The position numbers and the translations under genes were made by a program. From NCBI GenBank assembly GCA_963402885.1, contig OY727098.1, forward strand, positions 868,001 to 932,000: 64,000 bases of DNA, read 5' to 3'. Positions 18,800 through 63,855 of this stretch are shown piece by piece. The DNA comes from Antedon bifida. Taxonomy: Eukaryota > Echinodermata > Crinoidea > Comatulida > Antedonidae. How positions within the stretch are numbered: position 1 is the stretch's first letter; every line of letters starts with the position of its first letter. The notes below the pieces were generated by a model. It was not told where the DNA came from. It was given only the letters and a program-made list of their open reading frames with translations, and did no database searches.

Positions 18800-21556
18800 T
18801 CACTTTTTGGCAAAGTATAATTTTTTAGTTAACATTGACATAAAGCATGGCACTTGCTTCTTGCCAATCATTGCAGGATCTCTACAAGCCTTTACTGACC
18901 GCTGAGAAACAATATGGTTGACCAACAGAAGCATGTCTGTAAATTCCATCGTCGTTCCATAGCGCTCCATGACAAATGAAAGAGCTTGTATGAACCATGA
19001 ACCATAGGCTGTGTCTCGGTGCGAGTAATATCCTAGTCAATGGAAATAACGAAAATCATTTTAAATAAAAATAATGTAACTACATATATGTATAATATAC
19101 ACTAATGAAGGCCTAGTGTTGCCCGAAAGCTCTGCTAACTTTTCTAGCTGTTTTACTTTATCGTTTGATTTAGCTTTTCACTTTTATTTTGTATCTCCAT
19201 TGAGATCCAGCCACTTATACCCACAACATTTTTTCAGTATTTTGCCTTTGGATTTAAAGTATATGTTATAAAGTGTATGTTATAACAAATACATAAACAC
19301 TATTACTCTATAATATTGTCTGTGGTTCATATTCTGTGAGAGTAATTCAATCCATGGAGTAAAGCAAAATATAATTTCTTGTTAACACATTGTTTATAGT
19401 TAAGCCACTAAGTAAATAAACAAGGTGTGCTTTCCCAATTCAAGGGATATTTAACTTATGAAGGGACAACAAGAAACACATTGAAATTTGGGACTGTATC
19501 CAATGGTGTAACGTATGGGGCTAAGGTCCCTGGTTTAGCATTCCTAAGGGGCCCTTTAACTCTGGGTCGTTGCATTGGGGCTGCTCATGCTCTGGGGTCC
19601 CTAGGATCTCGCCACTGTGCATACCTCATTAATGCATATGACTGTACATTGATAGGAAGCAGTTTACCTTCAGCTACAGAGTATGCTAATAGAAAGTCAG
19701 CACCAGCAGGAACAGTGGGCCTTGGGCCTGCATCTGCTACATCAACATCCATTAACTCTACATCATCAAGACCATCCATAGCATCTATACCTATCTCATG
19801 TTCCTCACCACGACATGCCTTTAAAATAAACAATCGTATATACTCAATTGTTGTCAAAGTTTGTGCTCCAAATTTCTAACCTTATATCTGCCATTGTGTA
19901 AATGCAAATTTGAAAACAAGGCTTTTAAAGTTGTATTAAGATATAATAATTTTTATTTATGGAGTATTGGGATCACTGTGGCTAAATGTGTTACATACAA
20001 TGTGTTGTTTCTGTATTTAGAGCAGAAGTTAATAGATGAGTAATTGAGATATGGGATCTTTTGAGATGTCCTAACTTACACAACCTCTGCAGTGGATGAC
20101 ATAGTACCAGTTAAACAGAAATAAGACCACATTTACCCTGGATCGGCAATCGATAGGTGTAAACACTCCAGAAAGTTAGGTCGGCCCTGGGTGACCAATG
20201 GCTTGAGAAAATTGAGTAAATGAATCCTCAGGGCCGTTGTTTGGAATGCAAATGTAAACAAGCTGGATCAGGCTCAAACAATTAAATTTGTACCCATCCT
20301 GGAGGGCCCAGGAATGGCCCAGCACCCAATCGTGTAAATGGGGTATACCCACAAACCTACAGTAAGTTGTAAAAATGGACATTATTTTTATTATAAATCT
20401 TCTACTAACCTGTATTAAAAAAATCTTTGGTTTTCCAACTAAACTTTTGCACTTCTCTCCTCTGAAACGGTCAATGAGTTCTTGTAACTTAAGCACACCA
20501 TCATAAGCATAAATGACGTCGTTATCACCATGAGTAAGGAAGACGCATACAAAGCAATCTGAATCTGCATGACTCTGTTGTGACACTAAAAATACAAATT
20601 GTTGTAAAGTAAAATTTCTGATATTAAAGATTTGATTTATAAAGGAAAATCATTAAAAAACCAGTCGTAATTATCTACAGTATGCCCGGTATAGGACATG
20701 TCTTCTCAGGACTATAAACCGTAGGTCCAGTGTACACATCTGGCTCATGTGCACTTTAAAGAACCTAGTACATCTTTCGAGACGAGTAGGGGGTTACTCC
20801 GGTGCACTAGTACATCACATCCACTGATCACAACTGATCTTTGACTGAAGAAGTCGCCCACCAACTTGCAGTACTGTTTAGTGTCGTACCATTTTTTAGG
20901 GCATCCCATAACTGCACCACTGTTAAATCTTGATGAACTTTGACATCAAACTGAAGCTTTGTAAGTTGTTTTTTCAAGTTATCAACATCGTGTTGGGTTC
21001 CTCGCCTACGTGGCATTTGCGTGCCCAGATGAAATTCTTCATGATTGAAAATGACAGCAACACCACGTTTTGGATGAGACATATTATAGCTTAATAAATT
21101 CTTGTCAATTCCCTGTAAAATACTAAATAATAATTTATAAAACATGTTATATAAATGTGTGTGTGTATTTGTTCAACAAGATGTATAATATAATATAGTA
21201 ATGTATGGCCTAGAGTAGTAGTAGTAGTAGGCCTACCCTAGGCCTATGCTAATTATTTATTAATTTACTATATTATAGGCCTAGGCCTACTATACAGTAT
21301 TGCTTTATAAGGTAGCAGGTATTTACCTTGGTACGTCACTAGAAGTAGAATAATCAGGCACTAGTCCTAGGCCTGGTTGAACATTCCAACTACTGGCTGT
21401 GGTCTCAGACGCCGGGGTTTGATACTGACTTCTTACCGTGGATGGCTGTTGTTGGTTTCTCGACGACGATGAATGAATGGAAGGACGAGACGATGCAAAC
21501 AAAGCATCGTTTTCTGTTATGTGATTATCGTTCTTTGATTGATCTGCCATGTCCAA
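18800..21556 (-). CDS. Executioner-type caspase (caspase-3/6/7-like)
   Basis: Cysteine protease of apoptosis acting in the cytosol. Five coding exons, 21556-21327, 21122-20890, 20585-20410, 19818-19668 and 19032-18800, join in phase to give 340 residues. The first ~90 residues are Ser/Gln-rich with no CARD or DED. The large subunit holds the catalytic histidine in LTHGD (His173) and the nucleophile in QACRG (Cys215), with intron 3 falling exactly between Q and A. An acidic interdomain linker (residues about 224-244) contains candidate Asp cleavage sites. The small subunit has [18 protein letters not shown] and ends in [12 protein letters not shown], typical of effector caspases. The exon 2 acceptor was set at TTATTTAG because the nearer TTTTACAG breaks the frame. 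The MDMADQ start is used; MADQ two codons later is possible. Confidence 0.94.
19186..19256 (-). repeat. Dispersed repeat family D, copy 1 (caspase intron 4)
   Basis: On the minus strand it reads CCAAAGGCAAAATACTG and continues to GGCTGGATCTCAATGGAGAT. Closely related plus-strand copies are at 43301-43360 and 58224-58291. Confidence 0.75.
19504..19566 (+). repeat. Dispersed repeat with GGTGTAACGT start (caspase intron 4)
   Basis: Resembles 41341-41425 (+) and 52286-52368 (-): GGCGTAACGCAGAGGCC, then CCTGGTTTAGGAAACC, then AAGTGGCCCTC. It is probably the end of a transposon family. Confidence 0.55.
20688..20822 (+). mobile_element. SINE body fragment (caspase intron 2)
   Basis: It shares GGTCCAGTGTACACATCTGG, GTGCACTTTAAAGAACC and GAGTAGGGGGTTACTCCGGT with the complete minus-strand copy at 60090-60318 and with fragments at 37660-37760, 48757-48830 and 49495-49660. 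The tRNA-like head is missing here. Confidence 0.75.
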
Positions 21557-22609: not shown

Positions 22610-25600
22610 ATGTTATTATTCCGTCTGCTAATATGCTTAGCTTTTGTATTATTTATATCGGTAAGTATACTGACAAGTTGCAGGTAGTTCCATTATTGTT
22701 TGAAGTGAATTGTGAGATAATTTTACACATTTGCAAAATTTTTTACTCAAGTTTAGATAGAATGTTATGTTCTTAATATGCATATCTAGTCTAAGAGTTT
22801 ATATGCTAATGTGTGTACGTAACATAGAGATGGTGCATAGCCAGATTGTAGTGCTTCTAAATGCTATATAACAGGAATATCACGGAAGACTTACAACCAC
22901 ATGCTGAGAACTAAATTCAACTAACAACTCACGGCCACTCGTAAATGTCTCACCTCTCGTTATTATATACCTCCATGGATTTCTTAGCACCATAGGGGAT
23001 AGGCCTAACAATCACATATATGTTATGTTGTCTAAAATTTATACTTTTATATGGATTTATTCAAGGAAATAAAAGATAGATCCTGCAATGGTCGCCGTAT
23101 ATTTTTATAAAGATCCTTATAAAGTTTTCATTTTACGTATTATATTAACTTCAAGGCTATCTATCTAATATAAAGAAGTGATTAAATGTTGGGAAGAAAA
23201 TTCGTCTTTTAAATGGTAACAGTACAATTTGCCTAATCATTCAAGTCGTGATAAAGAAGTTTAGAGAGTGGGAAGAGAGGTATTAAGTCGAAAGAAAACT
23301 ATTTTCTATTATATTTAATTATTTTATTTGAGGACAGGAAAATGTTTGAATTTGAAACAGAACTATCAAAGGCGTGTAGGCCTACAATTCTCATCATCAA
23401 CATTTAATTATACTTCTTTATATTAGTTCTATACCATAAATGTTGAATATATAGTTTGGCAATAATCACCAAAAAAAACAAGGGCGTCTATCAGGTAACA
23501 CTTCCCATGTTACAATGTATAACTAAACAAAAGGGCGTTCAACAGTGTACGTAATTGGGTGTGGGCGCGACAAGTGTAATTTTTGCCACAATAATGGCCA
23601 CTGACTAATTTAATCAAAATTACGTAGGCTAGCTACAGATTCCGGGGGCTGGAGATGATTCAAATGTTTCAACAAATTACCGGTATGCGCGACTGTAGGA
23701 CATTATTTGGAAATATAATATATACTCTATATATTTTCCTGGTACTGGTAAAAATATATGTATATACTGTATACGGTACATGATTTGCAAGCAATACATT
23801 ACAAGTTCCTATCCCGTTGACCTAGACATCGTATATCGTGGGTTGCCTTCCATCCTTTATTTTCGCATATCAATTAATATCTTCCGTTTTCCCTTATATT
23901 CTCTGGGTTCTTGTTATATATTTCTATTAAATCGGTTAATTCTTTATGGTTTACAGAAGGTTACGTTCAATGTTCAATAAAGCCGATTAAGTTCGGGGTT
24001 TCCTTATGGATTTCCGGGTGTTCAATATTAGATCTCACTTAATTGTTATCTATTGTTATACAATGTGTATTGCTATTGCATAAAACAAAATTTATGAACT
24101 GCACTTTTGCTGAAATCGACAAAATTACGAAAAGGTTTAAATTTACAAAAAAATATCAAATAATATGACAAACTCTATTACATCCACCGAACCTGCATAA
24201 AATATGATTATTTAAATGATGATGATTTACTTAAATTTTATGGCGTAATGGTAGTTATATATTGTTTTTTTTTTTAAATTTTTATTTTAGTTCGTTGATG
24301 CTAGAAAACAAGAAGCTGACGGTAAGTTTTGAATAAAATGTTTTAACAACTTTGTTTCGTCTTGCCACAACTAGCCTATTTATTACTCAAATGTGTTTTA
24401 TACACAAACAGTTATTATGGGAGTGTAGACCTACATATTCTATAAATTATGAGAATCATAAACGACACATATTAAAATATTCAGTATACTACACTAGGCC
24501 TATATAATAGAATTCTAAAGTACTTTGTTAAATTATTTTGGAAACACAATATCATAGTTCCTCCAATTAAAATGGTTCTTTCTTGACTTACAATTCTTCT
24601 GGTCATGAATTTCATAGATGAATTATATCGTACTTTAAACAGAAGATCGCCTGGGAACCCACGACCACCAATTAAACCGAGAGAACCACATCGTCGTCAA
24701 ACAGATAGACCGAGACCCAGACCAAGATACCCTATAGCGACCTCACCACCTCCTCCTCTACCCCAAAAAGGTAGTGAAAAGATCAATGATTTCAGCACAT
24801 TGCACCTCGTTGCATAGCAAACTTCGGAGTTTACACATATCAGTGTGTGTGTGCAAACTCCGGGATTTTGCTAAGGGGATGAGATTAGTTTGCTACTATG
24901 GTGAGATTATTTATAGGACAGGAATATCATCTCATTTACATACACTTGCGGTCCTGAAGTCAGAACATTGTAGCTCACGCATCTACATTTATGATCACGT
25001 TTCGTCTTCGATAGTTTAGCTTGCAAACGAATTTCATATTAAAAAAACTCAACAGTTCTTTTCAGAACTAATACACGTGGTGTACCGCAAACTTTATATC
25101 AATATTAAAATGTTGTTTGTATCCTTTCAATGTCCAAGATAATAGCAACAATATTCTGCACCAATATTAGTATACAATAAAAATAACAGTAAATATTTAT
25201 AGATTTTGAGACAAAATTGGTACGGTAATAATAACAATAGCATTCAAATCGTTTGGTAATAATAGAATTTGTAATTTTCACATGTAAATACTTTTTTCTA
25301 CGAAAAGTCGGACCCATTCGGGGTGTCCTCAACTACAGTACATGTGAAATCGAACTTCTAATGTTTGCCATATTTTTTTTTCAAAGCTGTTAGGAACCAA
25401 AATAGGAATTCTAATGCTGATGAATGGTCAAAGGAAATAAGGTATATTATATTATGTTATCATATCTAGCAATTGTTATCTTTTCACTAGAATAAAAATT
25501 TTGATGCTCGTGTCACTCTTTTCTGAAATCTTGATCGTCCTAACTTAAAAACTAACATCTAACTCTCAAAATTGAGAATTAGGAAAACATGAATTACAGT

Positions 25601-28600
25601 TTTTGCTTGGCATTTTAGATTAGTTGATGGAGAAAGTGATAACATTGGTCGTGTTGAAGTTCGTGTAGAAATCAAGCCTGGTAAAATAAAATGGGGGAAA
25701 GTATGTCATGATAAATGGGAACAAGAAGATGCAGACGTTGCCTGTAGACAGTTAGGATTTTCACGGTAAATAATATGTATTGATCCACAGTCTGATCATG
25801 GAGTGAATGATCCATGTCTGCTGATACGCGTGTAATATTCGTGTGAATCAGTTATTGTGTATACATCCATACAGCGAGGAGCACTCGTTTTAGCGAGCAT
25901 GCAATGTTTCGACATGACACTCGCTTCTCCAACATTTCTGTTTACAGTAACTTTAGACAATTATTGTACATTTTGTGTCATCGCTTCTTTTTTAAAGTGT
26001 CTTCAATGATCAAAACTGTCTTTTATAGGGGTGCAAAGAAAGTCATTAAAAATGCAGAGAGAACATTTGGGCCAGGCAAACTTAATTTTTTTATGGATGA
26101 CGTCGAGTGTTCTGGAACCGAAGAAGCTTTACAGCTTTGCACATTTGGAAAGAAGGGTAGTAATAAGTTCGGTAGAGGTAATTGCAAGGATAAGAAAGTC
26201 AGGACTGCCGGGGTCGAATGCTGGATCAACCAGCTAACAAGTATGTAAAACTAAAATTAATATTGATATATTATTTTCAAAACAGTATTTCAGCAGCACT
26301 TTTCGTCATAGTAGGCCTACAAGAAGTGAGTTTCCAATGATATCATTTTTAATAAAATACTGGACTGGAATACAAGTGTTTGTTTTCATATATCTGCTAG
26401 TGCTATAATGTACCGTATTTTTTGTTTTTATCAAAAAGTATGTACAATTTTTTTGCAGCTCCAGCTCCAGATATGCTACACAAATTCGCTAAATTTCCCA
26501 ACGCCGCAATTCCAGCTAGCAACAACATACTAATAGAAAACATGGATCCCGGAGCATGCGCATTAAGATGTGTACGAGAGCAAAGCTTCACTTGCAGATC
26601 GTTTGATTTTGACAAAACGAAAGAGAGATGTTGGTTAAGTGAAGAAAACTCACGATCGGTGTCCTTGAGTTTCAATTACCGAGACAATCCTTACGATTAT
26701 TATGAACGAATTGATATAGGTACGTATTGTCAACATTTATATTTATAACTGAATAAATGTATGGAATAGAAGAATAACGTAACTGAACTGAATAAATTGG
26801 TAACGTATTAGTACATGATCCGATGAAACAAGGCTTAAATAAATTGCTCTCAGAACCAAATGTTTTACAGTTAACATTTGAATATATACAATATATAGTA
26901 CTATGTATTTCTATAATATTACTTCATCTTAACTTGTAAAGAAAATCTTCATTTTATATTTATAACTGTAGTAACGTTTCTGTCAGACTTTTATAAGTGA
27001 CAATGACTTGCTGTTGGTATGGATAATTGAAATAAAACGTCATTATTACACATTGATGGATGATACAATTAGTAACAAACTTTGATATAACTTAACAATT
27101 TTCTTTTTTAGGACCTGTATCATCTTTTCAAATTGTACCAAATTCTGCGTTGCCAGGTCAGAATATGATAGAATATCGCAATACTAAGCTAGAAAAGTGT
27201 GCTGAACTGTGTCTTGCTGCTGCGTTTCAATGCGCATCTTTTGACTTCTCACGTAAAACAAGCCAGTGCTGGCTAAGCAGTGCGAATCGTACAACGGCGA
27301 GTGCGCCACTACGGAGTGATTATCCGGACAACCCGTATGATTATTACGAACGCAAAGGAACATGTTTGTATTACTTTTAGCATTATTTTTATACTATTAT
27401 AACACATATATATATAACTCATTATATTATACTCATATTCAATAGTAAAACTCAACCAATAGTTGGATGGAAATTTACCGTATCTAATACTATATACACC
27501 TTAGTTTCTCCAACTTTTGCCAAACTGCTGATTTTCTAAATGACTTGGAAAACAAACGGAGATGAGCCTTTAGTGCATATACATCTGAATCCCAAAGGTT
27601 ACGGTACCTTAAGTATACATGTAAATCACTTGTAAGGCTTTGAAATTTAGTGCAATGATTCATCATTTCTTTAATTTATTCCGTAAATACATAATAAACA
27701 TATAATTTAACGAAACATTTGTTTTCTTGCAAATATATATTTTATACTATCCATACCTGTTGGATAGTGCAAAGATCAACCATACGAAAGGACAAAAGTG
27801 AGGAACCAATATAAGTATAAGTCCTTACCAATCAAAGAGGATCATAAAGGTTTATACAACAATGTACTAAATAAATGTGTTTACAGAAAAATAACTAAGT
27901 TATGCACTGATGTTTTAGCGGCTCGTGAGTGTGTTGTTGGAAAAGGAGAATCATACAGAGGAAAGACATCTATGACTGGTGGAGGACAGCGATGTGCCAA
28001 CTGGCAGGATGTTGGCAATGCAGTAGACGTCAATCCTACAACATTTCCAAATGCAGGTATTTCATGGTTTTGTATTACTTTAGGTATATACAAATCAAAT
28101 AAACGTTAGAATTTACCATTGTAATAAAATAAGGGATAGGTTTTTAACTTTCAGTACGGCAAATTTAGTGAAAAATAGCGAAGATTGATATAAATGGCAG
28201 AATCATTGACAATAATCATAGCATTTTTCAATAGCACCAACATGTCCATTTTAATTTATGTTGCGAGTTATTAATATTGAGAAAGTCTTTATCCACATCC
28301 TTTTTCACAATGATTCTGACACTTTATTTAACTTGTTAAAACCATTTTAATCTTTTGATTCGTGTGAATCTTCATTTTGATCTGTTTTATTTTGTTGTAT
28401 AGTTTTTATATGTTTCTCCTAAGGGAGGTGAATACAATTTTAATTAAACGTATGTTAAACTTGCAGGACTTGGTGACCATAATTTTTGTCGAAATCCTGA
28501 TGGCGATGAAAAACCATGGTGTTACTACTATGTGTCTTCGAGCTCTATTGCTGGTTTGCAGATCGTGAGTGGTTGGGATTATTGTAGTGTTTCTCCTTGT

Positions 28601-31600
28601 GCAGATCCAACAGGAAAGCCTAATATATTAACTGCTACTCAAGATATTAGTAAGTAACTGTCAATTATACACCTGTATATACACACCTTCGTAGAAATTC
28701 CAATATTGAAAATGGCGAAACTTTAGTAATATAATCACAAAATCGAGAATTTGAGAACTTGTCTACACCCACCATGACCAATATTTGTAAAATGTTGTTA
28801 AATCATGAACAAAAAGCTATATTTACTGCTTGTTCCGAGTCATAAAGCATTGTAACCTTTTCCTATTCTTTAAACGGTAGAATTATTATCGCTTGGCAAG
28901 ACAACTGGTCAAAGCAGTACAACGTCTTGGTCGGACATTATTGGAAGTTCGGATAAAGCCGTGGATGGTAACTTGTCTCCTAACTATTATGAGGGTAGCT
29001 GTACACATACAGGTACGTCAATCAATTCAAGCGTTTGGTGTATATTCAAACGTGCACTCCATGTTGAAATAAAATATGAACGTTTGTAATATATGGAAAA
29101 GGAAAGCAGGAACGTGTGCGGAGTTAGTAGTATGCATGTACGTCTGCCTAAACCAAGAATTTGTCCAAAAAGGAAATTAATTTGTCGAAGCAACAAATGT
29201 AGATGTATGGAGTAATATATGTTTATTATTACAGATCTTGAGCCGGAGCCATATTGGTATGTTGATCTTGGTGCTGAATTTAACATTGAACATGTTACAA
29301 TTGTTAATAGAGCGACAAACGGTAAGAAAATACTCTTATTCGCGACTCTACAGCTCTACACCTACGGTTGGTCGGTCGGTAAACACTAACTCAAATTTGC
29401 GCACGCGACTGCAGCCATGCATATGGCCTGTTTTTTATAGTGTGGATTATATTCCTTCCTAATCACCATCAAAGAGGAACGTAAAGTTTGGATCTTTCGT
29501 GTTCTATCGAAGTTCTTTCCTCGGCGATAAAAACTTGTTACATACTGAAACCCCACGATGAACATAACAATTCTATATATGTCTATTATTACAGGTAACC
29601 GTTTAATTAACGCACAGGTTAGTGTAAGTAGGCAATCGGCACCAACAACCTTCCAGAGTTGTGGCAGCCCTGTCACCACATCAATGTACGAAGAGAGTCA
29701 AAAGGATTCATCAAGAGTCATTACCATTCAATGTGGAAGTTTGCTTCGAGGTCGTTACGTCACTGTCAAATTAGTTGATACGCAGAATTATCTATCTCTA
29801 TGTGAAGTCAGCGTCTATGGATATAGCATGTCAGGTACCGTATGATGAATTTTGAAATGATTCATTCATTTCTTTATACTAATTCTTTATATATATATAT
29901 ACATGTTTAACTATGTTTACTAATAGGTATTACACAGAGTGTGCGGGTGCTACGTGTATAGAGATAACGTTTGACAAAATACTGCATCGGAGTCAACTTA
30001 ATCATGAATACAAAGATAATATGAATGGTATACAATTGTATGGAATATAATACAGTAGATTTCAGATTTACTTTATGATTTCCATCATTATGCGATAATA
30101 ACATGTATATATATTATAAATTATTTAGGAAACCAAGTTGTACCTACGCCAGCAGCTACAACCCCATCGCCCACATGTAGTACAACCGACTTCCGTTGCA
30201 ACGATGATCAAAGGTAGGTTAAAAGAACATATGTGATATAATAAAAAATCAAATATTAAATGTATTAAGTCAAAAAAACGTTAGACCAACATCTGAGTGG
30301 AACTATGCAGTGTAAGATCAGCAACCTGGTGTCACTATCCAAACATTCTTACCTTGAACTTCGTGTTTATCGGATGGACATACGACATCTCCTAGCATGG
30401 CAAACATTATACATACGTTTTTAGGGAATACTATATAAGCCCATATTAAACTATAGGTGTAGTCGAATAGAAGAGCACAATCTTCGGTTCTAAAACAAGG
30501 ATCATTAATTAATCAATAAACTTGCAAGTAGTCTTTGAATTTATTTCTCACCATAACGGAACACATTAATCAAGCAAGCTGCCTGTACAGGCCACCTTAT
30601 TCTGAGGGAGGAGTAAATTAACTATACTGAGGGAGGAGTAAAGATTCCTTTGCAGGCCTCCTTGTCTTTTTAAAATTGTAGGTGGGCTACAAATTGCACT
30701 CATCAATACATTCAGGGGTGCTGTAGGTGTGCCGTTTGTATTTTGGTGTGTAGAAGTTTACCAAATTTAAGTGTGTTGTAAATCACACTCCTCAAGGGCA
30801 GTTTAGGAGTGTGTTAGGTGAGTGATCGCACTCGCTCACCTCAAAAGAAAAGGCATGCCTTTGGATAAATCGCTTTGGTTTTACTAATATCTGATTGTGG
30901 TTTTTAGATGTATTCCACTATCATGGAAGTGTAATGGGGAAGATAACTGTGCAGATAGAAGTGATGAAGATGGATGCGGTAAGAAAAATAACCACTTTCT
31001 ATTATTCTCTGCTTAGTTCATCATTGTACTTTATCTCAGTATGAGCTATTCTTACTCTCTATGGTATTAGTAAATCTTTCTCAGTCACATCGTCATTATT
31101 TGAAGTGTGTATTAAGAATTCTTTAAATCACGTTTTATTGTTAGTAATAAACTAAAAATATGATTTTAAAAAAAACATCTAATTTACTCAAAAGTTATAA
31201 ATTTGACCTATAGTGAACCCGTTAGATGACTTTCGAGGTTTTGAAAATCAGCAACTACCGAAGGCTAGATCAGAAGAGGAATATATGCGCGTGAGTGCGT
31301 GGGAATGTGCGCAGAAATGTATCGAGACTGAATCATTTGTGTGTCGCTCTTTTGACTATAAATCAACCACAATGGATTGCTACCTGTTTTCACAAAATAG
31401 AGCTTTGAGAGGAGGGTTGATCGATGCTAATGACTACACTCATTATGAAAGAAGTTCACAAACAAGTAAGACTTTCACTTTTGCAGCTTTAAAAAAAAAG
31501 GTATATGGAAGAGTCAAAGTTCAGTAATTGATTAAACGTCATGAGTGACGACACAATAAGTCAACAATTGATGGTTAACAATCATACCATCAATCTTTAA

Positions 31601-34600
31601 ATAATGTATTTGCTGTTTGATAAATGCCGGAAAAAACAATTATATACCAGGATCTCCTATATTCGTTCATGGTGGTGTAAGTTTATAATCTAAATCTCTG
31701 TCTACACTATCAAACTAGTTAGACCAAAAAATGGGTGTCATGTGGCCACATATGGTAGTGATATGGCATCAACATGTCCATATGGACAAAAACAATTATA
31801 TACCAGGATCTCCTATATTCGTTCATGGTGGTGTAAGTTTATAATCTAAATCTCTGTCTACACTATCAAACTAGTTAGACCAAAAAATGGGTGTCATGTG
31901 GCCACATATGGTAGTGATATGGCATCAACATGTCCATATGGACAAAAACAATTATATACCAGGATCTCCTATATTCGTTCATGGTGGTGTAAGTTTATAA
32001 TCTAAATCTCTGTCTACACTATCAAACTAGTTAGACCAAAAAATGGGTGTCATGTGGCCACATATGGTAGTGATATGGCATCAACATGTCCATATGGACA
32101 CGATGATGTCACATAAAGTTTGATAGTGTAGACACAGTTTAAGATTATTGTTCTCATTATTTCAGCTGACTGTGATGATGCAGACCACCACCCGTGTCCT
32201 TCTGGTCTATGCATCCCGATGCGATGGCTCTGTGATGGCGATAACGACTGTAAAGATTTCAGCGACGAATCAAATTGTGGTAAGGGATCACGTCATTCTT
32301 ACCGCAGTAACTACATCTTGTTTACACTTTCACCTGTTTTAATTATGTAATATATATACAAACAAGGGTTCCTTGGGTAATCACACACACTCTGTATATT
32401 GCAGTGACTGCCTCATAAACTTCTATATTGAAAATAGCTATCGTATACGTTACTGCAGTAAAACATGTAGTTCCTGCAGCAATTGCAGTAAAATAATTTT
32501 GACATCTAAAGATTTTGAGAAAGTTTAATAATCCATGATTTATGTAATTTCCAACAATTCCTACTTATGTTTTGATTATTAAATTTAAACCTTCTTAGGC
32601 ACAACAGCCCCGTTTGAGGTACGCATTGTTGACGGTACATCAGAGAGTGAGGGACGAGTTGAGGTACGCTGGATGGGGGTATGGGGTATAGTTTGTGATG
32701 ATAGATGGGATTTGACGGATGCTAATGTTGTTTGCAAGCAACTAGGCTACTCAAGGTAAATACAATAATTGTCATCATCTAGAAATACGAACTGACATCA
32801 ATAATGTAAAACGTACAACAAATCAACAGAATCTAGAAAATGTGTTGATATGAAGTATTTGAAACTATTTAAGATGTTAGAATATCTAATTAAAGAGAGG
32901 TTACGAGAGAATGTACAAAACAGTTTTATATTCATAATATTACATAAACGGTTGTATGAGTGTGTATATTGATATTATAAAGGGGTGCCTCGAAGGCGAC
33001 AGCTATGGCAGAGTTTGGGTCTGGAGGAGGTAACATCATTCTAGATGAGGTAAAGTGTACAGGATCTGAAAGCTCTTTGGCAGAGTGTCCAAATGCCGGA
33101 TGGGGAACACATGATTGTGTTAAAGGAGAAGCTGCTGGAGTTGTTTGCCTTATGGATTCTGGTAAGATTGCAATCATATTAAGATGAGATAAACATTAAT
33201 CATCCCCTTTGGACAAATTAGACACATCAAAAAGACAGATACAATAATTATTGAGAATTATATTCTGTGTGTACATATTTGTATATCAAAAACTTCACGT
33301 TGGGACAGACCAAAAAATACCTGTATCAGTATCTTTTATTTTAAAATATGACTCAATCAAATCAAAGATCGAGATTTGATCTTGTACTTAACTTTCTTTT
33401 CATAGGCTGCCTTGAAGGGGAGTTTAGGTGTGGAAACGATAGGTGTATCCCAGGATCTGAACAATGCGATGGATCTATGCAGTGTGTAGATGGCAGTGAT
33501 GAAATGGGCTGTCCCACTGGTAGGTTTTCTTCCTTCTTTTCTGCTATTTTAGAATACTTCGATATTAAATACTTCAGTTAGAGTATTTGGTTTATTAACT
33601 AATTATGCGTTAGTGCCGATTTGTGTGGATTCATTGTCATGTCATTGTCACCAGTTAACTTCTTGCGGAAATGACGTAAGGAAGATGCGCACAGTATCAG
33701 TAACGTAGTAGAAAATCGTGCTGTACCCTTCATTGCCTGTACTTTCAGACGATAAAAAAACAATATATTGTCTTTTCAGAAAAACCAGTAGAGTTACCAC
33801 TTCGACTTGTTGGTGGAAGTAACGAAAAGGAGGGCCGATTGGAAGTACTCTATGAAGGAACCTGGGGAACGGTCTGCGATGATTTGTTTGATAAAAAAGC
33901 AGCAGAAGTTGTATGTAGAAAACTTGGCTTTAGGTTTGTACATTTCTTTCATTACGACGACACAAGAACTAGTTACGTCATATTAATTCATTGTGCACAT
34001 GCGTGGGGACATTGTCAGATGCTTGCTCACTCAATTCCTCGAGTGAGGACATTTGTAGGTTCAGATGACGACAACCAACGACATAGCTACTACATCTTTC
34101 ATCATCTAACTTGGCAAAACACAGATATATGACTTTGTATTTACTTTTATGCTATCTGTACACCATACTTTCATTTAGTTTAGTTAAGTTACAAAAAATA
34201 AAAAAGTATATTCTTATAAATACAAAATTCATTAAAGTATGTTTTTATTTGATGAATAGTGGTGATGTTGATGTCATCCCGACTGCTACGTTTGGAGAAG
34301 GAGTCGGTCAGATTATACTCGATGACGTCATCTGTGAAGGCAATGAAAACGATCTTAATGAGTGTGACCATGCACCTTTAAAACGACACAATTGCGCTCA
34401 CAGCGAAGACGTAGGTGTTCGATGTGGAATCGAAATGGTCACAATAGGTAAGACTCGGCAAACATTATTAACAAACTTTTGTTCAAACCAATCATTCGAA
34501 ACATAGATGCAAACAAATCATAATATTTACAATAATGTAAATCAACGTAAAAAATACATACAGTATTATTGGCTTTGAGAGTCGAATCCAAATTCACAAA

Positions 34601-35930
34601 AAAACACTTATTACAAATGTTGAGGAACAATGTTTTGAGATAAAATTCTTGCGTATGTTTTCAGAACCAAACACTTGTGGCGTCAAGATGGCTACCTCTG
34701 GCATCAATGCTCGCATCATTGGTGGGACATCAGCGAAGCGAGGGAGTTGGCCTTGGCAAGTACAACTGATATTGAAAGGGGGTGGAGGTCACTATTGTGG
34801 TGGCACCCTAATATCAGAAGACTACGTGATCAGTGCGGCTCACTGCTTCACAAGGTATGCTTTCTAGTCAAACAGGACCTACTGTGAAGCTCTGTCTGCA
34901 GACAGAGATTTAATATTATATTTTGATCTTTTCATGTAAACCATTTTAGTAATGTTCAACACAAGATGTTTGTTATTTTCCCATTCAATTCCGTTGTGGT
35001 TGAATTAACCTTTAATTATATAAAAGAGTACATTAATTAGAATATCTTTGTATCCATGATACAACTTGGAAACTATAGGAAAAGCCAACGTCAAACAAAC
35101 ATAACTATCTTTCTAAAACTTAAAATATGGAACTACAGAAATAACAATCATAAATGAAAGACTACTAAATTGTTTTCTTCAATTCAAGATACACAAAAGA
35201 ACTGTTTACAGTTCGTCTTGGAGAACATGATCAACGCATCAATGAAGGAAGTGAACAATCTTTTGACATTGAATGTCTTTTTCTTCACCCAAAATACGAC
35301 TCGGACACCACCAACAATGACATCGCCGTTTTGAAGTTGAAACGAAAGTCCAACGGTGGTGCTCAGTTCGGACCGTACGTAATGCCGGCTTGTTTGCCAT
35401 GGCCTACTAATGGTACAGCACAGTTTCCCAGTGGCCATGTCTGCTGGACTTCTGGATGGGGGAATACAGGTAATTATGCTTTAATTGTTATACATGTATT
35501 TTAATAAAGACAAAGAAAAACAAGTTTGTTCATTAAAAAAAAAGTAGAACAAGCCAAATATTATATTATTAATATTATAATTATTAATATATATATATTA
35601 TTATATTTCCAAGGTGGCGACTATCCCCGTATTCTACAAGAAGCCCGTATACCTTTGCTTCCACGTTCAGAGTGCAAGAGTCAGAAAGTTTATGGAAAAA
35701 AGTTGACAGCGAAGATGTTCTGCGCAGGATATCTGAAAGGCGGCATCGACTCTTGCGATGGCGATAGTGGCGGACCTTTAGTATGTGAACGTAACGGAGT
35801 ATGGACACTTTATGGTGTGACATCATGGGGTTACGGCTGTGCTCAAGCTAATGCTCCGGGTGTGTATGCCAGGGTGTCTGAATATATTAACTGGATTAAC
35901 CAAAAAAAGAATTCCAGAGTGTGTGAATAA
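22610..35930 (+). CDS. Neurotrypsin-like mosaic serine protease (SRCR/PAN/kringle/FTP/LDLa/trypsin)
   Basis: Secreted trypsin-family protease of 1,347 residues from 25 exons: 22610-22660, 24291-24321, 24618-24770, 25387-25441, 25619-25765, 26029-26240, 26459-26719, 27112-27363, 27919-28056, 28467-28649, 28881-29012, 29235-29321, 29595-29834, 30129-30213, 30908-30978, 31214-31465, 32166-32279, 32599-32755, 32983-33161, 33406-33519, 33780-33933, 34260-34447, 34665-34854, 35189-35469, 35614-35930. Order: signal peptide; basic proline-rich segment (about 30-78); SRCR (97-217); two PAN/apple (217-388); kringle with six cysteines (388-495); FTP/fucolectin (495-648); LDLa; PAN (700-784); LDLa; SRCR (822-934); LDLa; SRCR (972-1086); trypsin. 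Cleavage at R1102 before IIGG would activate it. His1145, Asp1193 and Ser1294 form the triad, and Asp1288 predicts Arg/Lys specificity. Neurotrypsin (PRSS12) shares the Pro-rich/kringle/SRCR/trypsin plan but has no PAN, FTP or LDLa. The least certain joint is exon 8 to 9 (weak donor ATGTTTGT). Some splice variation is possible. Confidence 0.93.
30590..30850. repeat. Low-copy repeat-like segment with short duplications (protease intron 14)
   Basis: ACTGAGGGAGGAGTAAA-type words are duplicated (about 30600-30645). A palindrome AGGTGAGTG / CACTCGCTCACCT closes the right end near 30815-30842. The composition differs from the surrounding intron; it may be a degenerate transposon. Confidence 0.4.
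31635..32140. repeat. 156-bp tandem triplication of a family A MITE half (protease intron 16)
   Basis: Units start at about 31635, 31791 and 31947 and are almost identical. Each carries CTCTGTCTACACTATCAAAC and ATATGGTAGTGATATGGCAT. The closing inverted end, GTTTGATAGTGTAGACA, occurs once, near 32120. One MITE therefore seems to have been partly triplicated together with its left flank. Confidence 0.9.
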
Positions 35931-36790: not shown

Positions 36791-39550
36791 TTAAAAATAT
36801 TTTTTTGATTGAAATCGTATTTTAAATATCTGATGCATTTCTTCGAGAGGATATTTCATTTCACTTGGTACAAGTGGAATATAAAGCAATCGTCTTACAG
36901 ATGGAATCCTAAGAAGAAAGAAGTACAGAAGTCCACAGAGACTAGAAACGGTCCAGTATAACGTGATAGCCTGAAAAACACAAACAGATTTGTTTGTTGG
37001 GACTACAGTAGTAGGTGCAAACACAGTTGAGGTAAGATGAACTTGATTATGAAGACTCTCGGTGGGTACTCCCACAACCTGAAACTACTGTACGCCCGAG
37101 TCACAGAATGCAAATACATGAAATTATCAGGGGCAGATCCAGCATTATAGATTAGGGGGGAGGTGGGAGGCTGCATAATTCATAAATGATAAAAACGATC
37201 TGTTGGGTTGCAGAAAAATAAAAATAGTTACTATTTAATTTTAAAAAGACATGGCTGTTAAATTTAAGGCGGAGGAGGGGGTCTAAAGCCTGTCTACCTC
37301 CTGCCTAAATCCGCGCCTGATTATACACTAAAATAAATAAAACAAGACTTACTGAAGGCATTAACATAGCTGTGGGTACCAGGCCGATGGAAAGTGAAAA
37401 CAATAAATATTGCAAACGGTGTTGAATTCTTGTAAGAGGGCCACGACGTAATGACCATAGCTGGTGAAAAGAAGAAAACAGAATCCAGTTATGTAATATT
37501 TATGGAAGGAATAAAAACCAATTGATGGGTCATTCATGTAGGTACATATGAAAAGAAAATGTATCTAGACATTATAAAATGGTAAGGTAGTGTGTCTGTG
37601 GATTATGTGTTGTGAGAAATACAATTAGTTTGTTTGTTTACATCATTCATACTGTAACTAGGGGAATAACTAGGGGAACCTCCTACTCTTCCAAAAGATG
37701 CACTGTGTTCTTTAAAGTGTACACTGGACCCCTGTTATGTCCTTATCCAAGAGGCCTTGTTAAACCATCACAACAATGTACAGAACAACTGTACTGATTT
37801 TATGGCTCTATTTTGCAGCGCTCCACTCGGCCACTCAAGTAGACTATTTAATTCATGAAAACAATAATAGCAATATTAAGGTACATTTATACTGTAGGTA
37901 CAAAAAAGTAGGCTTACCAACACTAACGATATATTTGAAACTCCAAATAAAAAAGGTAAAATAAAATCTGATTGAACTAGGTCCTGGAACCACAGTGTAC
38001 CTCCTGTTAGCAAACTTGGTAAAAAATCAATATCCACTTCTGAAAAATTCAAATTTGAGTACGACCAATTAAAGTTAAGCTTTAAAAAAATGCATAGATT
38101 GCTTTAAAAAGTATCCTCCTCAGTATAAATGAAATACTGTACCTGTTCCAAATAAACTGGGATATACACCAGTCATTTGTCCAATAGCTGTTGTCATAGT
38201 AACCCAAGATGCAACCTGTGCTATTGAAACATAACACAATCGAAATGGTCTGCAGTTTTCTCTCTTGTGAACCTTTTTGACAAACGCAGAAATCTGCAAG
38301 GCATAGTAAAATAAAATGATAAAACTGTTATTATCTATTGATGGTGAGATTCAAGTTTGATGGCATAGTACCCAAGCAATTTAGTAAAACCTAGGAGAAC
38401 CATAGGGAAGTCGGCAAAACCCTAGTAAAACCTAGGAGAACCATAGGGAAGTCGGCAAAACCCTAGGCCCTATATCAAAACTTGAAGAGGCCTTGACCCT
38501 GCAGTGGGTTGAAAATGTTGATCATCTAATTGTAGATCTGTAACTGTGTTGGGTGGAGTAGGCTGGGATACACACCTTCATTCAATCAAGTAATAGTTTA
38601 TAAATAACATAATTATTGACCATGATTTTCTATACAAAAAAGATATTTTACCTGATCACTGTAAACATCTGCCATTTGTCTTTGCGACCACCCAGATTCT
38701 TTTGCACGAACCGCAGTCTGTTGTTTTAAATGTTCTGCATATGTGTTAATCTCAATTTGTGTAGATTCAATTTTAGCCATCACTTTTTGTTGCAAAACAG
38801 CAAATGGCAAAATCAGAAAAGTTCTAAGCATTACTGTTGAAGCTATGATTGCCAACCACCAGGGAATGCCATAGCCATCATGCAATTTCTCCAACAGTTC
38901 ATAGAATGTTTCAACTGGTGTAGGAATATATATATTGTCCACTACTTTACCAGTAACTTCCACTTTGAATCCACGTGTACATGCTGTTAATGGTAGTTTT
39001 CTATATAGCAATGTATTATTTTTTAATGTTAAACTGTGGAATGATGACTTCCGTAATATCGCAGTGTTTCGGATGAGAAATCCATGGTTACTTGTACAGC
39101 TAGTGATGTATTTAAATTGCACAGAATTTATCTGGAATTAAAATTGAAATAATATTTGATCCTTAATATTATATTACATTTAAAAAGTTGGAAGACTTTA
39201 ATTGTACAGTGGGATAATAGTGGCAGATCCAGGGAGAACTAAGGTTGAGTGCTCCTCCATTTTAACAGCTAAAATTAAATTATTCAACTACATTTTGACA
39301 TCCATTTTTTGGCTAATTTTAAATATTATATGTTATTTCTCTCCTGTTTAAAAAATCCTGGATTCACCCTAGATTTAAAATGTTGAGTTTAGTTTAAAAA
39401 TTAGTGTAATGTGGTGTGCCTGTCATTTTGTTTCTTTCCAAGCAGATCTTAATAGAGAAGTATTTATTTATCAGTTTGATCAAATGCTTTCGGTAAATTA
39501 CAGGTACTTACCTGTTTTGCACATCTGTGGAACAATTTTAAAACACTCAT
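36791..39550 (-). CDS. COX18: COX18, mitochondrial inner-membrane insertase (Oxa1/YidC family)
   Basis: Inserts the C-terminal part of cytochrome c oxidase subunit 2 into the inner membrane during complex IV assembly. Exons 39550-39512, 39131-38652, 38293-38143, 38039-37918, 37460-37353 and 36970-36791 join in phase to 359 residues (human about 333). The first exon gives MSVLKLFHRCAKQ, a basic amphipathic start suited to mitochondrial import; translation from the second exon alone would lack an ATG. Oxa1-family hallmarks follow: YGIPWWLAIIASTVMLRTF membrane segment, LQQKVMAKIE, the AVRAKESGWS loop, VKKVHKRENCRPFR, then further membrane segments and ALTLYW-like AITLYWTVSSL. The C-terminus IPLVPSEMKYPLEEMH resembles COX18 rather than OXA1L. 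Introns hold a 41-bp duplication, a SINE fragment and a TIR element. Confidence 0.94.
37127..37320. mobile_element. TIR element (COX18 intron 5)
   Basis: The left end TCAGGGGCAGATCCAG is matched by TCAGGCGCGGATTTA on the other strand at the right end. A related but degraded element may lie at 39221-39371 (TGGCAGATCCAGGG and ATCCTGGATTCACCCTAG). It is non-coding. Confidence 0.6.
37660..37760 (-). mobile_element. SINE body fragment (COX18 intron 4)
   Basis: In minus orientation it matches the body of the SINE at 60090-60318: TTCTTTAAAGTGTACACTGG, TCCTTATCCAAGAGGC and an ACCTCCTACTC end. The head is absent. Confidence 0.6.
38383..38465. repeat. 41-bp tandem duplication (COX18 intron 2)
   Basis: AGTAAAACCTAGGAGAACCA starts at 38383 and again at 38424, and the two units are identical up to GGCAAAACCCT. 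Confidence 0.9.
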
Positions 39551-62788: not shown

Positions 62789-63855
62789 TTAACAATATTT
62801 AACCAGCGGATACGATTGCGACTGTTTCTGATAATACACAATATCAGACTCTCCTGGTACTCGGTCCTCAATACTTGACTGTGAAAAGGCGATGCATGCG
62901 TTAGTTACAGAGTTAAACTTAAACGCTTTACAACACGGTAGATGTACACATGTTTTTGAACATGCCAATGCAGATGTCTCCGTACCTTCGTAGAGCTGTG
63001 ATCCCGTAATGCCCAGTGATTGAACAACCTTCGAAAATGTTGCGCTTTTGTCGAACGGCCAATCTATCAAAACAATAAAAAAAAATTATTAAAGTATGTA
63101 ATTGGCATGCAATTGGCAACTATAAAATAGAGGTAAAGAGTGATGGTTATGTATTACTTTCTAGTGAACTTCCACCACATCAAGATTGGGAATGTATAGC
63201 CACGGAGAACTTATTTCTCCGTGTTGTAACACTGTTTGTCACGTAGACATACTTTCAAGTATCTTGTCTTTTGCAGCTTTCATTTCCACTTCATTTAATG
63301 CATGGCTGTAAACTTGTAATGCAGCTACTCTAGCAAATAAATCATCGTTGGAACTTCCGAGTTGTAGCTCACTTAAGTCCAGGTCCATGCTATCGAAATC
63401 TGTAAACGCAATGCTAGCGATCTCTCCATCTCTCCACAGTTTGAAGTTTCTTTTTGAACCGTCAAATGTAATGGCAATAAAAGTCCAAACACTTGGTAAA
63501 AGTACGTGTGCTTTCGTTATCTCCTGATCATTGTAGGAAACCGTGACTTCTGAATGATATAAGTAGTTATTCGAATATGTTTGTTCAATTTTGAGATGTG
63601 TGTCGCCGTTGATGGTGCTTAGTATTTCACCAGACGATACTTCATTTGGATATATGTACATCGTTACTGTTAACGCTGTTACTTCATTCCCAACACTCTG
63701 ACTGTCAATAGTAATAGCATGGTTTAAGGACTGAATATTATCGTCTAAACAGTCAGAATTTATGTTTACGGAATTAGTAGATGCAAACCATGATTGTAGG
63801 CAACTAAGGCTAAGATCTGATATCTGAAGAGCACTCAAGTCTGGAATTACTGAAC
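62789..63855 (-). CDS. LamG-like plus PAN/apple protein, 3' part (runs off the right edge)
   Basis: Two terminal exons, 63855-63253 and 63063-62789, join in phase 1 and end in a stop; upstream exons lie beyond the window. The first exon (about 200 residues) has the concanavalin-like/LamG pattern of long beta strands: ALTVTMYIYPNE, VWTFIAITFDGSKRNFKLWR and a closing VAALQVYSHALNEVEM. The last exon (about 90 residues) is PAN-like, with ACSKTC, CCKAFKF and a late CIAFSQ. Both domains occur in secreted or surface adhesion proteins, so an extracellular role is likely. The complete protein and its name cannot be given from this fragment. Confidence 0.75.

What the first reader, a model, noticed from the sequence alone, without database searches (positions are those of the whole stretch)
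22610..35930. Neurotrypsin-like protease with added PAN, fucolectin and LDLa modules
Seen: one continuous 25-exon reading frame of 1,347 codons combining a basic Pro-rich segment, 3 SRCR, 3 PAN, kringle, FTP, 3 LDLa and trypsin. Known: neurotrypsin (PRSS12) has the Pro-rich, kringle, SRCR and trypsin parts only. Inferred: an expanded secreted protease that could act in matrix remodelling, synapse or immune recognition. I know of no described protein with this exact order.
Basis: partly seen in the sequence, partly recalled or inferred. Interest (0 to 1): 0.78.

Follow-up and report, generated by a model that had tools for sequence, protein, structure and literature searches.

The report
Feather-star neurotrypsin/Tequila-type mosaic protease gene
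A feather-star-like genome carries a real gene for a large secreted trypsin-type protease built from many borrowed binding modules; most of this module set is already described in insects and lancelets, and the extra fucose-lectin-like module is the new detail.

Summary
Each domain family scores above its Pfam cut-off; the catalytic motifs and trypsin pocket are intact. The host is an echinoderm by mitochondrial code and probably a crinoid by mitochondrial composition and gene order.

It is neurotrypsin-like, but PAN, LDLa and kringle are not evidently 'additions': the honey-bee Tequila/Sp22D relative SP23 is printed as SR-Clect-KR-LDLA-PA-2LDLA-SP, whose shared modules run in the same order as here, and lancelet proteins are listed with SRCR, kringle, LDLRA, PAN and trypsin. 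The kind is therefore known; the FTP lectin and extra PANs are variant features. I read it as an old bilaterian mosaic protease of which neurotrypsin may be a reduced form, probably a secreted, surface- or matrix-targeted zymogen. No transcript was available, and no Tequila, lancelet or echinoderm neurotrypsin sequence could be compared.

The parts
22610..22683 (+). exon 1: start codon and signal peptide ([24 protein letters not shown]), phase-2 donor
   Evidence: hydrophobic start scan; model
24643..25441 (+). exons 2-3: basic Pro/Arg-rich segment (43 aa: 15 P, 10 R) and linker
   Evidence: exon 3 (25387-25441, first seen) solves the phase and gives the SRCR start EIRLVDG
25619..26240 (+). 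exons 4-5: SRCR1 (6 Cys; its first residues lie in exon 3)
26459..26719 (+). exon 6: PAN/apple 1
   Evidence: PAN_1 3.6e-11
27112..27363 (+). exon 7: PAN/apple 2; weak donor CAT|gtttgt
   Evidence: PAN_1 1.2e-12; donor score -2.6
27919..28649 (+). exons 8-9: kringle
   Evidence: Kringle 5.7e-17; plasminogen, HGF and tPA kringles among PDB hits
28881..29834 (+). exons 10-12: FTP-like F5/8 type C lectin domain
   Evidence: F5_F8_type_C_2 1.8e-14; 3cqo and 1k12
30129..30978 (+). exons 13-14: LDLa1
31214..31465 (+). exon 15: PAN/apple 3; weak acceptor
   Evidence: PAN_1 1.8e-11; acceptor score -2.7
32166..32279 (+). exon 16: LDLa2
32599..33161 (+). exons 17-18: SRCR2 (6 Cys)
33406..33519 (+). exon 19: LDLa3
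33780..34447 (+). exons 20-21: SRCR3 (6 Cys), next to the protease
   Evidence: PDB: LOXL2 5ze3 1.3e-32, neurotrypsin 6h8m 2.0e-30
34665..35930 (+). exons 22-24: activation segment (NTC...NAR|IIGG) and trypsin domain with His, Asp, Ser motifs and DGG S1 pocket, then TAA stop
   Evidence: Trypsin 2.2e-72

Best explanation
It is the crinoid (feather-star) representative of the neurotrypsin/Tequila-type mosaic proteases: a secreted zymogen of about 1,310 residues after removal of the signal peptide. Shown from sequence: signal peptide, eleven cysteine-rich or lectin modules plus the protease domain, intact catalytic motifs, trypsin-like pocket, an Arg|Ile-Ile-Gly-Gly activation site, and a Cys just before it that can pair with the Cys of the 'MPAC' loop, so the activated protease should stay tied to its module chain. 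Inferred: the modules act as an anchor. The SRCRs (acids of cation sites 2 and 3 largely kept in SRCR2 and SRCR3), the fucolectin-like domain (His/Arg/Arg aligned with the eel lectin), the kringle, the PANs and the LDLa repeats hold the protease at glycan- or proteoglycan-rich surfaces of matrix, cells or microbes. There a trypsin-like enzyme activates it and it cuts nearby proteins after Lys/Arg. The module set, and most of the order, was probably present in the bilaterian ancestor; the FTP lectin and the PAN pair before the kringle are lineage features.
For: Domain set and order. Honey-bee order SR-KR-LDLA-PA-2LDLA-SP (its CBDs and C-type lectin, and our FTP, left out) is a subsequence of ours; 6 of 120 possible orders of those six modules would be, and shuffling our ten modules keeps it in 4,126 of 100,000 trials (order). 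Daphnia SCV3, a Tequila co-orthologue, has three SRCRs. Lancelet module set in 3 of 4 entries. Trypsin domain: recalled human neurotrypsin scores 214.6 bits by phmmer, against 191.5 for the best of 177,635 distinct PDB sequences (HGF activator, query one residue longer) and 181.5 for recalled bovine trypsin. No close paralogue seen in its own genome: the best non-self matches of the last 686 aa are trypsins at 31-38% identity (65 of 755 candidates scored). S1 residues D/G/G assigned by motif, the class printed for bee and beetle Tequila relatives. Eel lectin His/Arg/Arg align with H, R, R here (their role is recalled). Echinoderm host: AAA read as Asn at four COX1 sites, tRNA-Lys CTT; mt composition 26.4 A/46.7 T/11.4 C/15.4 G against 26.7/46.0/11.4/15.9 in the crinoid Comaster.
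Against: No transcript. No Tequila, lancelet or echinoderm neurotrypsin sequence could be aligned, so orthology rests on architecture plus one recalled sequence. By BLAST identity the protease is 43.9% to recalled neurotrypsin and 42.9% to recalled bovine trypsin, hardly different. SRCR3's PDB score is higher with lysyl oxidase homologue 2 (1.3e-32) than with neurotrypsin (2.0e-30), so the SRCRs do not point to neurotrypsin. The collinearity test is modest (about 1 in 20 to 25). Our activation site is NAR|IIGG; the bee's is IFQK|VVRG and the beetle's R|VVRG. No chitin-binding domain was found here, while bee, beetle and fly Tequilas have them. The bee order as printed shows no SRCR near the protease. 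SRCR1 lacks part of the cation site and SRCR3 one acid of site 1. Two of four lancelet entries have a trypsin domain predicted non-functional. Domain-shuffled proteins can look related without common descent (PMC3927612 passages).
Confidence: 0.7

Rival explanations
1. A lineage-specific mosaic assembled by exon shuffling in echinoderms; the likeness to neurotrypsin, Tequila and lancelet proteins is convergent reuse of promiscuous phase-1 modules (epaktology).
For: 16 of 23 introns are phase 1, the usual condition for shuffling; a neighbour gene reaching into the window has FTP-like, kringle, Laminin_G_3 and PAN modules and no listed trypsin match, so the modules are locally available; PMC3927612 warns of exactly this error (passages).
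Against: Shared order with the bee protein and the same set in lancelets; best phmmer score with recalled neurotrypsin.
Confidence: 0.22
2. Two transcription units, or two main isoforms: a short secreted SRCR-PAN-PAN protein ending in the retained intron after exon 7, and a kringle-to-trypsin protease from another start.
For: The donor after PAN2 is the weakest donor in the model (-2.6); the exon 7 frame runs to a stop at 27378-27380 if unspliced; AATAAA occurs at 27693 and 27870; Drosophila Tequila has at least three spliced forms.
Against: Of the ten hydrophobic ATG starts listed in 26240-34665, the three upstream of the kringle (26337, 27337, 27362) had no donor scoring above 1; the bee protein joins SRCR and kringle in one chain; AATAAA is frequent in this AT-rich DNA (30 sites in 16 kb).
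Confidence: 0.1
3. [quoted passage not shown]
For: Lancelet proteins with SRCR, kringle, LDLRA, PAN and trypsin were best reciprocal hits of tPA or HABP2, and one without PAN of HGFAC; the best PDB chain for our protease is HGF activator (191.5 bits).
Against: Recalled neurotrypsin scores 23 bits higher; PDB scores of HGFA, chymotrypsin and TMPRSS2 differ by about one bit, so that ranking is uninformative; the lancelet placement had 41% bootstrap support. The two readings need not exclude each other if both groups descend from this type.
Confidence: 0.2

Closest known systems
Tequila/Graal/Sp22D (Scrasp1) family of arthropods, especially honey-bee SP23
   Same: SRCR, a lectin, kringle, LDLa, PAN, LDLa, LDLa, trypsin, with the shared modules in the same order; trypsin-type pocket; low-complexity N-terminal part (PMC1761132, PMC11172050, PMC2685406 passages)
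   Different: chitin-binding domains there (not in Daphnia SCV4) and none found here; a C-type lectin before the kringle in the bee, an FTP-like lectin after it here; one PAN listed there, three here; VVRG instead of IIGG at the activation site
Neurotrypsin (PRSS12)
   Same: Pro-rich start, kringle, several SRCRs, trypsin at the C-terminus with an SRCR next to it; best phmmer score of the protease (recalled sequence)
   Different: neurotrypsin has Pro-rich, kringle, 3-4 SRCRs, protease and a predicted furin activation site (PMC9616769 passages); here SRCR1 precedes the kringle, PAN, LDLa and FTP modules are present, and no furin motif was found
Lancelet SRCR-kringle-LDLRA-PAN-trypsin proteins (Branchiostoma belcheri, Asymmetron)
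   Same: the same five module types in one protein in 3 of 4 lancelet entries (PMC6337849 Table 2, passage)
   Different: no F5/8 or FTP module listed; order and copy number not given in what I saw; 2 of 4 have a trypsin domain predicted non-functional
Holothuria neurotrypsin-clade SRCR proteins
   Same: echinoderm proteins grouping with vertebrate neurotrypsins (PMC13228809 passages)
   Different: average of two SRCRs; architectures not seen by me; the authors had no non-holothuroid echinoderm sequence in that clade and say that sampling may be the cause

Membership tests
Neurotrypsin (PRSS12) | C-terminal trypsin domain with catalytic triad and basic (Asp189) specificity | tested here: met
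   Trypsin 2.2e-72; AAHC, NNDIAVL, GDSGGP and DSCDGDSGG motifs
Neurotrypsin (PRSS12) | Pro-rich segment, then kringle, then tandem SRCRs with no other modules | tested here: not met
   SRCR1 comes before the kringle and PAN, FTP and LDLa modules intervene
Neurotrypsin (PRSS12) | furin-type zymogen activation site | tested here: not met
   site reads [10 protein letters not shown]; no R-x-K/R-R in the 1,307-aa model
Neurotrypsin (PRSS12) | protease domain closest to neurotrypsin | tested here: inconclusive
Neurotrypsin (PRSS12) | SRCR next to the protease closest to neurotrypsin SRCRs | tested here: inconclusive
   one neurotrypsin SRCR entry among the PDB hits (6h8m, 2.0e-30); LOXL2 scores better (1.3e-32)
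Tequila/Graal/Sp22D | SRCR, LDLa and trypsin in one secreted protein, PAN and kringle in some members, in collinear order | tested here: met
   order test 6 of 120; family orders
Tequila/Graal/Sp22D | chitin-binding domains | tested here: not met
   no chitin-binding hit at E 0.01 in Pfam scans of the 1,307-aa version or the N-terminal 215 aa; Daphnia SCV4 of this family also lacks them
Tequila/Graal/Sp22D | sequence grouping of SRCR and protease domains with Tequila | not testable with these tools
   no animal sequence collection on hand beyond the own genome and PDB chains
Plasminogen-activator/HGF group | kringle(s) next to trypsin, with FN1/FN2/EGF (activators) or a single N-terminal PAN (PLG/HGF) | tested here: not met
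   no FN1, FN2 or EGF hit at E 0.01; kringle not adjacent to trypsin
Fucolectin (FTP) domain | F5/8-type fold with His/Arg/Arg fucose site | tested here: inconclusive
   fold by profile and PDB hits; three residues align with 1k12 with a one-residue gap, binding untested (residue roles recalled)

The most novel reading that the evidence does not exclude
The bilaterian ancestor already had a secreted protease of the form SRCR-kringle-LDLa-PAN-LDLa-SRCR-LDLa-SRCR-trypsin with a lectin module near the kringle. Vertebrate neurotrypsin, and possibly the plasminogen-activator group as well, are stripped-down descendants, while crinoids, lancelets and insects keep the long form and swap its lectin (FTP in the crinoid, C-type lectin in the bee). 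The synaptic protease would then derive from a glycan-targeted matrix or immune protease.
Probability: 0.4. Interest if true: 0.55.

Novelty: new variant of a known kind. Interest (0 to 1): 0.34.

Why it matters
[quoted passage not shown] A complete gene in a crinoid-like genome bears on that directly. Taken with the bee and lancelet architectures it makes the origin of neurotrypsin by module loss a testable statement, and it suggests that the lectin module is the exchangeable targeting part.

Tried and rejected
A first exon-chaining run with over-long anchors gave spurious small exons and a wrong last exon (stop set two bases early); corrected. One search used an exon start off by one base, gave a frame full of stops and was discarded. 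For exon 2 I first took 24618 (phase 1) with a weak SRCR1 acceptor at 25600; replaced by 24643, plus exon 3, plus 25619, which satisfies signal peptide, phase and the SRCR start together. A start at 23685 (with its upstream in-frame ATGs) was the only hit of an early scan demanding a phase-1 donor; rejected for the far better one at 22610. That the gene is one of a tandem family found no support: no close copy in the own-genome search of its last 686 aa, which scored 65 of 755 candidates and did not list even this gene's own short LDLa exons. That the genome has another kringle+trypsin gene found no support: reading the trypsin (154 matches, list truncated), kringle (64) and PAN (117) lists by eye, only this locus combined trypsin and kringle within 25 kb; the next are the neighbour gene's kringle, 28 kb away on the other strand, and a pair on C7 near 29.25-29.32 Mb, about 66 kb apart. 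The PDB ranking of the protease domain does not separate families and was not used as such. Structure prediction was not run: spliced chains are not letter-for-letter window translations, and a model would not have decided the question. The search for related loci and the phage, plasmid and E. coli collections were not used because they hold no animal genomes.
Full report
WHAT IS THERE. The window is C11:868001-932000 of a 315.6-Mb, 27-contig genome. On the + strand, exon cores with clear domain content run from 25.6 to 35.9 kb. A dynamic-programming chain over GT/AG sites, with hand checking, gave a 22-exon frame of 1,307 aa, extended 5' to a 24-exon model of 1,336 aa. All 23 introns are GT-AG and agree in phase: 16 are phase 1 and 7 phase 2 (exon ends 1, 3, 4, 13, 17, 20, 22). 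Exon 1 (22610-22683) codes a signal peptide, and exon 2 starts straight in the Pro/Arg-rich part (15 Pro and 10 Arg in 43 residues). The stop is TAA at 35928-35930. I trust least exons 1 and 2 (chosen by hand) and the junctions at 27363 and 31214 (scores -2.6 and -2.7); several further sites also score below zero (for example acceptors 27919, 32983 and 34260 and donor 33933, -1.5 to -0.8).

DOMAINS. Pfam on the 1,307-aa version: SRCR (3), PAN_1 (3), Ldl_recept_a (3), Kringle, F5_F8_type_C_2 and Trypsin, each family above its gathering score. The longer N-terminus (215 aa, scanned apart) adds no further domain, and SRCR1 there scores 1.2e-20. Order: signal, Pro/Arg-rich, SRCR, PAN, PAN, kringle, FTP-like, LDLa, PAN, LDLa, SRCR, LDLa, SRCR, trypsin. 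Each SRCR has six Cys, each LDLa six, the kringle six, each PAN four and the FTP-like domain four. The FTP-like domain's two best of six PDB hits are FBP32 and the lectin 1k12, fish fucolectins as I recall; the His and two Arg that, as I recall, bind fucose in the eel lectin 1k12 align with H, R, R here across a one-residue gap.

PROTEASE. The motifs AAHC, NNDIAVL and GDSGGP are intact, and the motif positions for 189/216/226 read D, G, G, the trypsin class. The activation site is NAR|IIGG, not a furin site. A Cys before it (NTCGVK) and the Cys in MPACLP are in the places of the usual inter-chain disulfide (inference from the chymotrypsin family). Two further Cys (DIEC and the penultimate residue) have no standard partner. 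By phmmer the domain scores 214.6 bits against recalled human neurotrypsin, 181.5 against recalled bovine trypsin and at most 191.5 against any PDB sequence (HGF activator). By BLAST identity the two recalled controls hardly differ, 43.9% and 42.9%. The first two scores and both identities rest on memory.

SRCR DOMAINS. In PDB the SRCR2-LDLa3-SRCR3 stretch scores highest with multi-domain CD163. Among single matches of SRCR3, lysyl oxidase homologue 2 (1.3e-32) is above neurotrypsin 6h8m (2.0e-30), so these domains do not by themselves point to neurotrypsin. From the residue numbers in PMC7043408 (passages) I placed the cation ligands by motif, which is my reading and not an alignment from a call. 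For sites 2 and 3, SRCR3 keeps CDD, LDDV and HNC..E; SRCR2 has CDD, LDEV and HDC..E; SRCR1 has CHD, MDDV and NC and lacks the Glu. For the two acids of site 1, SRCR2 has both, SRCR1 has Glu and Asp, and SRCR3 has one (Ala for the second). In neurotrypsin, calcium and heparin act on the SRCR and protease part (PMC9616769 passages).

HOST. Contig C27 is a 15,844-base mitochondrial genome. AAA stands at four COX1 positions that read Asn under code 9 (contexts RVNNMSFW, VINMRSP, NVNTTFF, GSNISWD) and AGA or AGG at four listed Ser positions, and tRNA-Lys has anticodon CTT. This is the code shared by echinoderms and flatworms; that those positions are Asn and Ser in other animals is recalled. Gene names of the mitochondrial frames other than COX1 (found by Pfam) were given by eye. 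On the COX1 strand the composition is A 26.4, T 46.7, C 11.4, G 15.4%, against 26.7/46.0/11.4/15.9 in the crinoid Comaster and 26.9/44.9/12.0/16.1 in Florometra, where high T and low C are called crinoid-specific (whole texts). ND4L lies between tRNA-Arg and ND5, and ND1 and ND2 are on the opposite strand to COX1; a paper title reports an nad4L rearrangement within crinoids (reference lists). I therefore take the animal as a crinoid, probably a feather star; the species is unknown.

OWN GENOME. A search with the last 686 aa finds only this locus at high identity. The best other matches are trypsins at 31-38%, and SRCRs at up to 57% (75 matches, 65 of 755 candidates scored; this gene's own short LDLa exons were not listed, so small exons are missed). 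Among kringle (64), PAN (117) and trypsin (154, truncated list) matches read by eye, no second locus joins kringle and trypsin within 25 kb. The gene looks single-copy, within those limits.

COMPARISON WITH PRINT. Honey-bee SP23, 'most similar to An. gambiae SP22D' and like Tequila, is printed as 4LC-4CBD-SR-Clect-KR-LDLA-PA-2LDLA-SP (PMC1761132 passages; another sentence of that paper calls SP23 the orthologue of Manduca HP14, which elsewhere it gives to SP49). A beetle Tequila has CBM(3), LDL(3), SRCR(2) and PAN (PMC11172050 passages). Daphnia SCV3 of the same group has three SRCRs and two chitin-binding domains, and SCV4 has two SRCRs and none (PMC2685406 passages). Of four lancelet entries, three are listed with SRCR, kringle, LDLRA, PAN and trypsin and one without PAN; two have a trypsin predicted non-functional (PMC6337849 passages). 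Taking the bee's six shared modules, with its CBDs and C-type lectin and our FTP left out and the protease fixed at the end, 6 of 120 possible orders are subsequences of ours and the bee's is one; shuffling our ten modules keeps it in 4,126 of 100,000 trials. This is moderate evidence for shared order, stronger together with the shared set. Drosophila Tequila is titled a neurotrypsin orthologue by Didelot et al. 2006 (reference list entry only).

LIMITS OF THE 'NOT IN PRINT' CLAIM. In the searches (open-access PubMed Central only; listings read, passages of the papers named) I saw no protein with this full order, and none combining FTP with SRCR, kringle, LDLa, PAN and trypsin. Database predictions such as sea urchin XP_030831393.1 could not be read, and figures were not available.

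HOW IT LIKELY WORKS. Shown: secretion signal, modules and complete catalytic motifs. From family knowledge: activation by cleavage at Arg|Ile, Lys/Arg specificity and a two-chain product. Inferred: the module chain docks the enzyme on glycan- or proteoglycan-bearing surfaces (matrix, cells or microbes), and limited proteolysis follows there. Fly Tequila is induced on infection, yet mutants showed no clear infection defect, and neurotrypsin cuts agrin, so matrix, immune and synaptic roles all remain open. I favour a matrix or coelomic-fluid role with immune overtones, at low confidence.

VERDICT. A real, well-formed gene of a known kind with a variant lectin module. The claim of a new architecture is largely answered by earlier insect and lancelet reports; the evolutionary inference is the part worth testing.

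Noticed in passing
window 62825-62977 (-) and L026:5789-8341 (-) (C11:930789-933341): Neighbouring minus-strand gene with an FTP-like stretch (tblastn 38%, 2.6e-5), a single-exon kringle, a Laminin_G_3 domain and a PAN; no trypsin match nearby in the listed part.
   Followed up: partly
window 31632-32100: Three perfect head-to-tail copies of a 156-bp unit in the intron between PAN3 and LDLa2: very recent, homogenised, or an assembly feature.
   Followed up: no
window 20176-21172 (-): Two stretches matching the caspase domain (Peptidase_C14, 2e-14 and 3.4e-11) on the minus strand directly upstream of the protease gene.
   Followed up: no
window 38613-39137 (-): Exon resembling the OXA1/YidC insertase family by eye; Pfam 60KD_IMP only E 0.0058, below its cut-off.
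   Followed up: no
L028 and L029 (C9:32305001-32325000): Region with several kringles, seven PANs and a long LDLa array, no listed trypsin match within 200 kb; its PANs are 32-50% identical to those of the protease (output of 53 was cut).
   Followed up: partly
G000:C27 (L010, L011): Crinoid-like mitochondrial genome with ND4L next to ND5 and with ND1 and ND2 on the strand opposite to COX1.
   Followed up: partly
window 35260-35930 (protease exons 23-24): Two Cys of the trypsin domain (in DIEC, and the penultimate residue of the protein) have no standard disulfide partner; they may pair with each other or with another chain.
   Followed up: no
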